A DNA stretch of 38,537 nucleotides from Candidatus Woesearchaeota archaeon (lineage in GTDB: Archaea > Nanobdellota > Nanobdellia > SCGC-AAA011-G17 > GW2011-AR20): contig JACOZR010000036.1 of NCBI GenBank assembly GCA_016181245.1, positions 1 through 38,537 of the forward strand, in the 5' to 3' direction. The position numbers and the translations under genes are program-made. Within the stretch, counting starts at the first letter, position 1. Each line of letters starts with the position of its first letter. The notes under the pieces are model-generated. The model saw only the letters and a program-made list of their open reading frames with translations, was not told the origin of the DNA and made no database searches. Shown here one piece after another: positions 13,734 through 32,241 of the stretch.

Positions 13734-13756
13734 CCCAATTTTCATAAAATAGATAA

Positions 13757-13936
13757 TGGAGTATTATTCTTAAAAGATATAAAAAACTTGTTAAAAAAAT
13801 TAATATCGAAACAACTCCCATAGGGTTTACTAAAGCTCATATAAGAAAAGATGGGATACACAGCCAAGAATTAAGGTTTAGAGTTCTCACAAAGCATAAC
13901 AATAAATTTATAAAACAAATAGGATGGATAAAATAG
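13757..13936 (+). pseudogene. Start-less reading-frame remnant, possibly homing-endonuclease-like
   Basis: A 59-codon open stretch without a start codon, preceded directly by TAA. It ends in TAG at 13934-13936. The translation looks like real protein: ILKRYKKLVKKINIETTPIG, then FTKAHIRKDGIHSQELRFRV, then LTKHNNKFIKQIGWIK. The basic, alternating pattern and the closing F-h-K-x-I-G-W resemble the C-terminal end of LAGLIDADG-type endonucleases, which invade introns and tRNA neighbourhoods. This assignment is by eye only. Its last base coincides with the proposed first base of tRNA-Pro. Confidence 0.4.
13907..13914 (+). promoter_or_regulatory. TATA box of tRNA-Pro
   Basis: TTTATAAA is centred 26 bases before the GGG at 13936-13938. 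If used, transcription would start exactly on that GGG and not on the one at 13960. Confidence 0.5.
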
Positions 13937-14067
13937 GGCGTAACACCCATTGCCGGTATGGGACTTCAAAAAGAAGCATAAAGCTATAGGCTAATGGTTA
14001 GGCTCACAGGTTTGGGTCTAAAAAAGCAAAAAACCTGTTGATCCAGGTTCGAATCCTGGTAGCCCCA
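13936..14067 (+). tRNA. tRNA-Pro(TGG) with anticodon-loop intron and interrupted acceptor stem
   Basis: The 3' part is certain: D arm GGCT-AATGGTTA-GGCT (13989-14004), anticodon stem ACAGG (14006-14010) with CCTGT (14034-14038), anticodon TGG (14013-14015), T arm CCAGG-TTCGAAT-CCTGG (14043-14059), acceptor TAGCCCC and discriminator A (14067). A 16-base insert (14017-14032) sits at the usual 37/38 intron site. The 5' acceptor should be GGGGCTA. Its last four bases GCTA are at 13983-13986, but the three bases before them are AAA. A matching GGG occurs at 13960-13962 (20-base insert) and at 13936-13938 (44-base insert, matching the TATA spacing). Both imply an intron at position 3/4. The mature tRNA would be 72 bases, with CCA not encoded. 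Confidence 0.75.
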
Positions 14068-14110: not shown

Positions 14111-14320
14111 ATGGCAAAACACAAAGTAGGCACAGCTGGTCGTTTTGGACCAAGATACGGAAGAAAGATTCGCCACATAGTTTCAGAAATTGAAAAAAAA
14201 TTACGTTCATGGCATAAATGCCCTTACTGTAAAAAGTTAAGAGTAAAGAGAGTTTCCTCTGGAATATGGGAATGTAGATCATGTAATACAAAGTTTACAG
14301 GAAAAGCATACACGGTTTAA
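14111..14320 (+). CDS. rpl37ae: Ribosomal protein eL43 (L37Ae)
   Basis: A 69-residue large-subunit protein: MAKHKVGTAGRFGPRYGRKI at the N-terminus (rRNA contact), followed by a zinc ribbon with CPYCKK and CRSCNTKFTG. Length and motif order match archaeal L37Ae. One base separates it from rpoP, and the L37Ae-RpoP-prefoldin order is common in archaea. Confidence 0.96.
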   Translation: MAKHKVGTAGRFGPRYGRKIRHIVSEIEKKLRSWHKCPYCKKLRVKRVSSGIWECRSCNTKFTGKAYTV

Positions 14321-20880: not shown

Positions 20881-20928
20881 TAAATAGCAATCCAAAACTC
20901 TTAAAAAACTCTTTCTCTTAATATTATA

Positions 20929-21197
20929 GCAGACTAGATTGGCGGGCTAGCCCCTCGTTGTAACTACAAACGGGCTTCATGGTAGGATCGAATCTTGGGG
21001 AGAGGTATATGTACTCATGCAAACCTCAGCCGTACTGATGATCCTCTGTCCTGTTCGGTCGGTATAGAAAGGAACTGAGTCAGGGTAGGAATACAGCAGC
21101 TCTAACTTACTATACTGGCGCTTACAGGGAAGCAGAGTGTAGGAAAAGTTGGGATCATTTGCATGAAATGCATATATCCATCTCCAGGAGTGTCTGC
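20929..21197 (+). ncRNA. Signal recognition particle RNA (7S RNA)
   Basis: About 269 bases. The SRP54-binding helix 8 is unmistakable at 21079-21100: GTCAGG, a GTA-GGAA-TAC tetraloop hairpin, then AGCAGC, giving the asymmetric loop read by SRP54. The Alu domain is near the 5' end, with a TGTAAC turn (about 20960). The two ends pair (GCAGAC at 20929 with GTCTGC at 21192), forming the archaeal helix 1 that closes both termini. End points are set by that pairing and are approximate. Confidence 0.93.
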
Positions 21198-21242
21198 AAT
21201 ATTAAAAATTAAAGAATAAGTAAAAAAATAAAGAAAAGGGAA

Positions 21243-31288: not shown

Positions 31289-31684
31289 ATGAACTTAGAA
31301 GCATTTCTTAGAAAAGCCGAACTTGGAGAAGGGTTTAATGTAGAAGAAGCTTTAATGCAAATACCAGGAAGAATGAGACATTATTTTAGGGAGCTATCAA
31401 CTAGGCTAGGAAGAGAAAGCATGATTTTTCTAGTAGCTTGCGCAGACTTCTACGATAACCCAGAAAGAACATTAGAAATTATAAAAAAAACTTTTCCAGC
31501 AACAGGAATGGAAAGAGTAAACTTCCAAATGTTCTACAGAAAACAAGAGGAAGGGTATAGGAGAAGAAAAGCGAGTAGAACAAAAAGCGACCCGGATCTT
31601 ATAATGTTTGCAATAGAGGGTTTATGTCCAGAATCTCCAGGAAGAAAAGTTGGAAAATACATGGCGAGAGAAAAAATTTATTAA
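31289..31684 (+). CDS. Hypothetical basic helical protein (131 aa)
   Basis: Not recognised. Begins MNLEAFLRKAELGEGFNVEE; the rest is helical and Arg/Lys-rich (YRKQEEGYRRRKASRTKSDP), suggesting nucleic-acid binding. There is no membrane segment and few Cys. The gene stands alone between the divergent U32 gene and the convergent endA, overlapping endA's stop by four bases. TTTAAAG about 15 bases before the ATG and AT-rich sequence upstream give a weak promoter only. Confidence 0.65.
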   Translation: MNLEAFLRKAELGEGFNVEEALMQIPGRMRHYFRELSTRLGRESMIFLVACADFYDNPERTLEIIKKTFPATGMERVNFQMFYRKQEEGYRRRKASRTKSDPDLIMFAIEGLCPESPGRKVGKYMAREKIY

Positions 31685-32241
31685 GGTCTAGTCCATTTAA
31701 TCTCGTAATATGTAACATCCTCTTCCGCATCGACTATTCCCAATAAAAGTCTTTTCCTTGTACTATGAGCAACTCTATTTTTGGCACTAAATTCATGCCA
31801 CGTTAAAGTATTACCTTCGTGCACAGGAAATAAGACCCATTTAGCATGATCTTCTCCAGGTTTTACACCTCGATCATACACCCTAAAATCAGCTCCGAAT
31901 TTTAAAGCAGTCTTAACAATATAACCCCTACCCCTCATATCCCTATAAACAAGATACTTTAACCAAATATTAGGATCAGTTTTCTTAGAATTTTTTAATA
32001 AAGTATCAAACTTCAAGTTCTTCTTGCCATCTTTGACATTCATTTTTCCTTTTTCAACTAAGTATAAAGCTTCAACCAAAGAATAAACTATCTTGCCTTC
32101 CTTAGGCTCCCCATATCTACTAGAATCATAAAGTTCTCTAGCGCTTCCTTTATCCTGAGCACTAACCTTTTCAGTTAAAAAATCAGCCACAAACTTTCTG
32201 ACTTTTATCTTTTCTTCCTTGATAATCTCTTTATCTCCCAT
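31681..32241 (-). CDS. endA: tRNA-splicing endonuclease EndA
   Basis: 186 residues, the length of the homotetrameric archaeal type. The catalytic triad is intact: Tyr122 in FRVYDRG, His132 in GEDHAKW and Lys163 in STRKRLLLGIVD. GADFRVYD and HSTRKRLLLGIVD are the conserved strands of the C-terminal nuclease fold; the N-terminal domain has YSLVEALYLVEKGK. EndA cuts bulge-helix-bulge introns. At least two tRNAs and possibly alba in this window carry such inserts. It is divergent from RNase Z, linking the two tRNA end-processing and splicing nucleases. Confidence 0.96.
   Translation of the reverse strand: MGDKEIIKEEKIKVRKFVADFLTEKVSAQDKGSARELYDSSRYGEPKEGKIVYSLVEALYLVEKGKMNVKDGKKNLKFDTLLKNSKKTDPNIWLKYLVYRDMRGRGYIVKTALKFGADFRVYDRGVKPGEDHAKWVLFPVHEGNTLTWHEFSAKNRVAHSTRKRLLLGIVDAEEDVTYYEIKWTRP

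What the first reader, a model, noticed from the sequence alone, without database searches (positions are those of the whole stretch)
13936..14067. tRNA-Pro with two inserts, one breaking the acceptor stem
Every part of tRNA-Pro(TGG) is present, but the first three acceptor bases (GGG) are separated from GCTA by either 20 bases (from 13960) or 44 bases (from 13936, which matches the TATA box spacing exactly). The intervening bases fold into two hairpins: CCCAT-TGCCGGT-ATGGG and CTTC-AAAAA-GAAG. A further 16-base insert sits at the canonical 37/38 site. An intron at position 3/4 with a leader-free 5' exon of only three bases would be very unusual for splicing by EndA.
Basis: partly seen in the sequence, partly recalled or inferred. 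Interest (0 to 1): 0.75.

Follow-up and report, generated by a model that had tools for sequence, protein, structure and literature searches.

The report
Intron splitting a tRNA's acceptor stem
A proline tRNA gene in a tiny, uncultured archaeon is interrupted after its third base by a 20-base intron whose splice signal is completed by the RNA upstream of the tRNA, so the intron probably has to be cut out before the tRNA's front end is trimmed; relatives share the arrangement, and an intron at this site was previously known to me only from another archaeal group.

Summary
The locus is tRNA-Pro(UGG) with two introns: 20 nt at position 3/4 (13963-13982) and 16 nt at 37/38 (14017-14032). Each has a textbook bulge-helix-bulge (BHB) motif, and removing both restores a perfect 7-bp acceptor stem. 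The 20-nt option (G1-G3 = 13960-13962) is right; the 44-nt option from 13936 has no BHB. Position 13936 instead fits the transcription start of a 24-nt leader. Three leader bases form part of the BHB, so splicing should precede RNase P. The sister species keeps both introns. Acceptor-stem introns (3/4 or 4/5), all in tRNA-Pro, occur in seven further genomes of the class (named records: Candidatus Woesearchaeota), with compensatory changes in the central helix. Their TATA-to-G1 spacing is 43-61 nt, versus 26-36 in intact tRNA genes. Their leaders are unusually complementary to exon nt 5 to about 26, suggesting a splint that supplies the outer BHB helix. Introns at 3/4 are already reported in some Thermoproteales, so the kind is known; the lineage and the leader anatomy look new. 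There are no RNA data.

The parts
13907..13914 (+). TATA box TTTATAAA, 49 nt upstream of G1 (box centre), predicting transcription start near 13936
   Evidence: Promoter scoring; start site inferred, not measured
13936..13956 (+). 5' leader, proposed splint: CCAUUGCC (13947-13954) and GG (13955-13956) complementary to exon nt 5-18; GGGCGUAAC partly complementary to exon nt 18-26
   Evidence: CCAUUGCC kept in sister species G001
13957..13960 (+). 5' strand of BHB central helix (UAUG; last base is G1)
13960..13962 (+). Exon 1: tRNA nt 1-3 (GGG)
13963..13982 (+). Intron 1 at position 3/4, 20 nt; inner helix CUUC (13964-13967) / GAAG (13973-13976); central-helix 3' strand CAUA (13977-13980); 5' bulge GG|A, 3' bulge AA|G
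   Evidence: conserved in G001
13983..14016 (+). Exon 2: tRNA nt 4-37, anticodon UGG at 14013-14015
14017..14032 (+). Intron 2 at position 37/38, 16 nt; BHB central helix UUUG (14011-14014) / CAAA (14027-14030)
   Evidence: conserved in G001
14033..14067 (+). Exon 3: tRNA nt 38-73 (no encoded CCA)
14111..14320 (+). Ribosomal protein L37Ae; same neighbour of tRNA-Pro in G001, G005, G006, G007, G012, G016, G066, G284
   Evidence: name from sequence motif and own knowledge
31681..32241 (-). EndA, tRNA-splicing endonuclease (186 aa), the predicted enzyme
   Evidence: PF01974 1.2e-28 and PF02778 4.7e-14; nearest PDB chains 3iey_A and 1a79

Best explanation
It is a functional, doubly interrupted tRNA-Pro(UGG) gene. 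A transcript starting near 13936 carries a ~24-nt leader. The leader pairs with exon nt 5 to about 26, and its last three bases plus G1 pair with the 3' end of the 20-nt intron, forming a BHB at position 3/4. EndA cuts there and at 37/38, and RtcB joins the exons. Only then can the 7-bp acceptor stem form, displace the leader and let RNase P cleave at G1. Shown: gene anatomy, BHB geometry, conservation and covariation, longer promoter spacing, leader-exon complementarity above controls at group level, EndA and RtcB genes. Inferred: transcription start, splicing itself, the order of steps, the splint function, and RNase P in this species (its RNA was found in the sister species but not in this incomplete assembly).
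For: Unique best two-intron solution restoring 7/7 acceptor pairs. Chance of the motif 1e-4 or less. Same two introns in the sister species; intron-1 changes confined to the loop, leader G13955 to A keeps the pair with U6. Strict acceptor-stem BHBs in seven more genomes, all tRNA-Pro, with compensatory central-helix changes UAUG:CAUA, GAUG:CAUC, GGUG:CACU, AAUG:CAUU, AAGG:CCUU, AUGG:CCAU. TATA spacing 43-61 versus 26-36 nt, p = 1.3e-4. Leader-exon duplex z mean -2.25 versus 0.0 in 30 controls, p = 4e-5. EndA in the window, RtcB present, RNase P RNA in G001.
Against: No RNA data. Short-stretch folding of the G000 leader-intron region prefers a competing CCCAU/AUGGG hairpin and is no more stable than shuffles. 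The splint signal is weak in G001, G040 and G087 and falls to p = 0.03 when the four positions next to the BHB are left out. Some intact controls also score low (L172, L180). The assembly is incomplete (83%).
Confidence: 0.88

Rival explanations
1. The intron at 3/4 is real and spliced by EndA, but the leader only supplies the few bases of the BHB; the wider leader-exon complementarity is incidental or has another role.
For: Splint weak in G001, G040 and G087; p = 0.03 without the four positions next to the BHB; some intact controls reach z of -2.4 to -3.2.
Against: Group difference p = 4e-5; complete separation of promoter spacing; long paired blocks, for example AAGUUACC with GGUAACUU in G284, although that gene was found with a pattern that selects for complementarity.
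Confidence: 0.45
2. A leaderless transcript starts at 13936 with GGG as nt 1-3, and the intron is 44 nt, 13939-13982.
For: TATA spacing fits a start at 13936; splicing it out would also give a perfect acceptor stem.
Against: No BHB joins 13938 to 13983. G13936-G13938 are kept in G001 but the bases just downstream, which a BHB would need, diverge. Relatives have the BHB at the GGG next to the shorter intron.
Confidence: 0.04
3. Pseudogene, with a functional tRNA-Pro(UGG) elsewhere in the genome.
For: Assembly 83% complete, so another copy cannot be excluded.
Against: No other copy found in G000 or G001; exons 97% identical between species with both BHBs maintained; same arrangement in other genera.
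Confidence: 0.04
4. No 3/4 splicing: the AAAGCUA end is trimmed and nt 1-3 are rebuilt by a Thg1-like 3'-to-5' polymerase.
For: Such repair is known for Thg1-like proteins (own knowledge).
Against: No Thg1 (PF04446) in 21 of 21 genomes including this one; it does not explain the conserved BHB.
Confidence: 0.01

Closest known systems
tRNA introns at position 3/4 in certain Thermoproteales (Sugahara et al. 2008, as cited in PMC4090602)
   Same: Intron at the same tRNA position, in archaea, with a BHB-type splice site.
   Different: Here in DPANN Woesearchaeota, which have one EndA gene per genome as far as found. The original paper is not held, so I could not compare which tRNAs are affected or whether their leaders are exon-complementary.
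Canonical and noncanonical archaeal BHB tRNA introns, several per gene (for example Pyrobaculum)
   Same: Short introns, 4-bp central helix with two 3-nt bulges, combined with a 37/38 intron.
   Different: Three of the four 5' central-helix bases, and the outer helix, come from the removable leader and not from an exon.
Split (trans-spliced) tRNA genes of Nanoarchaeum equitans and Crenarchaeota
   Same: Sequences outside the mature tRNA base-pair to build the BHB.
   Different: Exons are contiguous in one transcriptional direction; the pairing partner of the leader is the exon itself.
Permuted tRNA genes of Thermofilum pendens (PMC3218864)
   Same: Unusually long promoter-to-tRNA spacing marks genes with unusual processing.
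   Different: Exon order is normal here.

Membership tests
Archaeal BHB tRNA intron (EndA-spliced) | 4-bp central helix flanked by 3-nt bulges on opposite strands at the cut sites | tested here: met
   Both introns, four Watson-Crick pairs each
Archaeal BHB tRNA intron (EndA-spliced) | Removal restores a normal cloverleaf | tested here: met
   7/7 acceptor, tRNA-Pro(tgg)
Archaeal BHB tRNA intron (EndA-spliced) | EndA and ligase RtcB encoded in the genome | tested here: met
Archaeal BHB tRNA intron (EndA-spliced) | Pairing conserved by compensatory change | tested here: met
   Nine genomes with strict BHBs at 3/4 or 4/5
Archaeal BHB tRNA intron (EndA-spliced) | Spliced product seen in RNA | not testable with these tools
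   No RNA data
3/4 introns as in Thermoproteales | Insertion between nt 3 and 4 | tested here: met
3/4 introns as in Thermoproteales | Common descent with the Thermoproteales introns | not tested
   No Thermoproteales sequence fetched
Split tRNA gene | Exons on separate transcripts | tested here: not met
   All three exons lie in order within 108 nt
Group I intron | Match to a group I intron family | tested here: not met
   No such Rfam match in the window; insert only 20 nt
Thg1-type 5' repair | Thg1-like polymerase encoded | tested here: not met
   0 of 21 genomes

The most novel reading that the evidence does not exclude
The 5' leader is a cis-acting splint: an approximate antisense copy of exon nt 5 to about 26 that holds the pre-tRNA in a non-cloverleaf hairpin, supplies the outer helix of the acceptor-stem BHB, and forces the order splicing first, RNase P second. 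This would be a distinct precursor architecture for tRNA-Pro in this class of DPANN archaea.
Probability: 0.5. Interest if true: 0.65.

Novelty: new variant of a known kind. Interest (0 to 1): 0.52.

Why it matters
It appears to extend acceptor-stem tRNA introns, known from certain Thermoproteales, to DPANN archaea, and offers an explanation of how an intron can sit after only three exon bases: the removable leader stands in for the missing exon. It makes testable whether splicing can be obligatory before RNase P, and whether an EndA apparently encoded by a single gene handles introns at unusual positions when the BHB is canonical. It also shows that tRNA annotation can miscall such genes, here as tRNA-Phe.

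Tried and rejected
44-nt intron: no BHB. Pseudogene: conserved in the sister species, no other copy found. Thg1 repair: gene absent. ARAGORN's tRNA-Phe(aaa): artefact of the unspliced 37/38 intron. A covariance model of mature tRNA-Pro (R1) was a poor screen because it aligns AAA as nt 1-3 and ranks intact genes first. MAFFT misaligned the 5' modules (A2), so the helices were compared by script. G284 and G090 were left out of the enrichment tests because the pattern that found them selects for leader-exon complementarity. The Sugahara 2008 and 2007 papers are not held. The upstream ORF had no credible Pfam match.

Full report
What is there. The stretch 13960-14067 is a complete tRNA-Pro(UGG) in three exons. 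Rfam's tRNA model fits only from position 4 (38.1 bits), and ARAGORN calls the unspliced gene tRNA-Phe(aaa). I enumerated all strict bulge-helix-bulge (BHB) introns (4-bp central helix, two 3-nt bulges) in the region and scored the 4057 resulting models with up to two introns by cloverleaf fit. The best removes 13963-13982 (20 nt, position 3/4) and 14017-14032 (16 nt, 37/38) and restores 7/7 acceptor, 4/4 D, 5/5 anticodon and 5/5 T pairs. ARAGORN reads the spliced sequence as tRNA-Pro(tgg).

The 3/4 BHB. Central helix UAUG (13957-13960) with CAUA (13977-13980); 5' bulge GG|A; inner helix CUUC-AAAAA-GAAG; 3' bulge AA|G; outer pairs G13956-C5 and G13955-U6. In 20,000 dinucleotide shuffles of the upstream 90 nt, a GGG joined exactly to nt 4 by such a motif appeared in 0.44%, in 0.01% with an inner helix of 3 bp or more, and never with 4 bp or more. 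The alternative GGG at 13936 (44-nt intron) has no BHB.

Conservation. The other genome of the genus (G001) has the same gene (97% identical over the BLAST match) with both introns. Changes inside the 3/4 intron are confined to the loop (AAAAA to AAGGA), leader 13955 G to A keeps the pair with U6, and CCATTGCC is retained while the leader bases just upstream of it diverge. No second tRNA-Pro(UGG) was seen in either assembly; they are 83% and 89% complete.

Distribution. A pattern search for tRNA-Pro in 145 genomes, a mature tRNA-Pro covariance model and a leader-exon pattern over 378 genomes of the class, followed by inspection with the BHB script, gave strict acceptor-stem introns at 3/4 in G007, G028, G050 and G284 and at 4/5 in G040, G066 and G090. 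With G000 and G001 that makes nine genomes. G087 is broken at the same place without a strict BHB. All are tRNA-Pro. The central helices show compensatory change: UAUG:CAUA, GAUG:CAUC, GGUG:CACU, AAUG:CAUU at 3/4 and AAGG:CCUU, AUGG:CCAU, AUGG:CUAU at 4/5. Many tRNA-Pro genes of the class lack the intron. At one locus, tRNA-Pro directly upstream of the gene for ribosomal protein L37Ae, it is present in G000, G001, G007, G066 and G284 and absent in G005, G006, G012 and G016, so it has been gained or lost at a fixed place. The two public records found with the motif are named Candidatus Woesearchaeota. The searches were not exhaustive: frequencies are lower bounds.

The leader. Three of the four 5' bases of the central helix are leader, so the leader must still be attached when EndA cuts. 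Two further signals agree. First, the TATA box lies 43-61 nt from G1 in six acceptor-intron genes with a strong box, but 26-36 nt in 20 intact tRNA genes (p = 1.3e-4); for this gene it predicts a start near 13936. Second, the leader is complementary to exon nt 5 to about 26. In G000, CCAUUGCC pairs with GGC(U)AAUGG of the D arm, and GGGC.GUAAC can pair further on. Across eight genes found without using this feature, leader-exon duplex z-scores average -2.25 against 0.0 for 30 mostly tRNA-Pro controls with intact acceptors (p = 4e-5; 2e-4 with dinucleotide shuffles). The signal is partly in the four positions next to the BHB (p = 0.03 without them) and is weak in G001, G040 and G087. Predicted folds of longer precursors contain the leader-exon helix, but short-stretch folds of G000 favour a competing CCCAU/AUGGG hairpin. 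I rate the intron as near-certain on sequence evidence and the splint function as about even odds.

Machinery. The window encodes EndA (31681-32241, minus strand; PF01974 1.2e-28, PF02778 4.7e-14). Its closest PDB chains are 3iey_A (tRNA-splicing endonuclease; partner chain NEQ261, so Nanoarchaeum equitans) and 1a79. It is the only PF01974 gene found in the assembly; in 61 genomes, 56 have exactly one, one has two and four have none. That suggests a single-gene, alpha-type enzyme, but a divergent second subunit was not searched for separately, so the enzyme type is not settled. RtcB is present. RNase P RNA was found in G001 and 14 other relatives, but not in the incomplete G000 assembly. Thg1, needed for the 5'-repair rival, was found in none of 21 genomes.

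Proposed mechanism. Transcription near 13936; leader-exon hairpin; EndA cuts at 3/4 and 37/38; RtcB ligation; the full acceptor stem forms and displaces the leader; RNase P cleaves at G1. The order is an inference: if RNase P cut first, three bases of the central helix would be lost.

Compared with what is known. A review states that in an extreme case an intron is inserted at position 3/4 in certain Thermoproteales tRNAs (PMC4090602). tRNAscan-SE 2.0 extends candidates by 60 nt to catch introns near the ends (PMC8450103). A 2025 paper mentions acceptor-stem introns in archaea in general (PMC12397907). So this is not a new kind. What I did not find described, in a library that lacks many subscription papers, is its occurrence in DPANN archaea, its concentration in tRNA-Pro, and the exon-complementary leader.

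Noticed in passing
L005, L006, L007, L008, L009, L012, L015 (other tRNA genes of the same genome): The genome is rich in tRNA introns: BHB introns predicted at 37/38 and also near 22/23 and 30/31.
   Followed up: partly
L014 (G000:C6:20898-21041): A 144-nt tRNA match that looks like a tRNA with several inserts, including one in or next to the T loop; no good model was found by the script.
   Followed up: partly
L019 (G000:C4:8656-8673): A tRNA 3' part (variable arm, T arm, acceptor end) without a recognised 5' part next to it; could be a split or heavily interrupted tRNA.
   Followed up: no
L232 (G284, tRNA-Pro upstream of L37Ae): Appears to hold a third insert of several tens of nt in the T loop besides 3/4 and 37/38.
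   Followed up: no
window 13750-13935: Short ORF upstream of the tRNA, overlapping the TATA box; in G001 the frame is broken although much of the DNA is similar, so it looks like a decayed gene. No credible Pfam match.
   Followed up: partly
window 13947-13962: Leader hairpin CCCAU/AUGGG competes with the BHB for G1-G3; in G001 it is kept with one G-U pair. Could be a folding switch or chance.
   Followed up: no
window 20927-21199: Archaeal SRP RNA, 127 bits.
   Followed up: no
G013:C1:498996-501707, G015:C53, G004:C33: RtcB matches in two pieces separated by over 1 kb; open frames around the matches are about 950-1010 aa, as expected for an intein.
   Followed up: no
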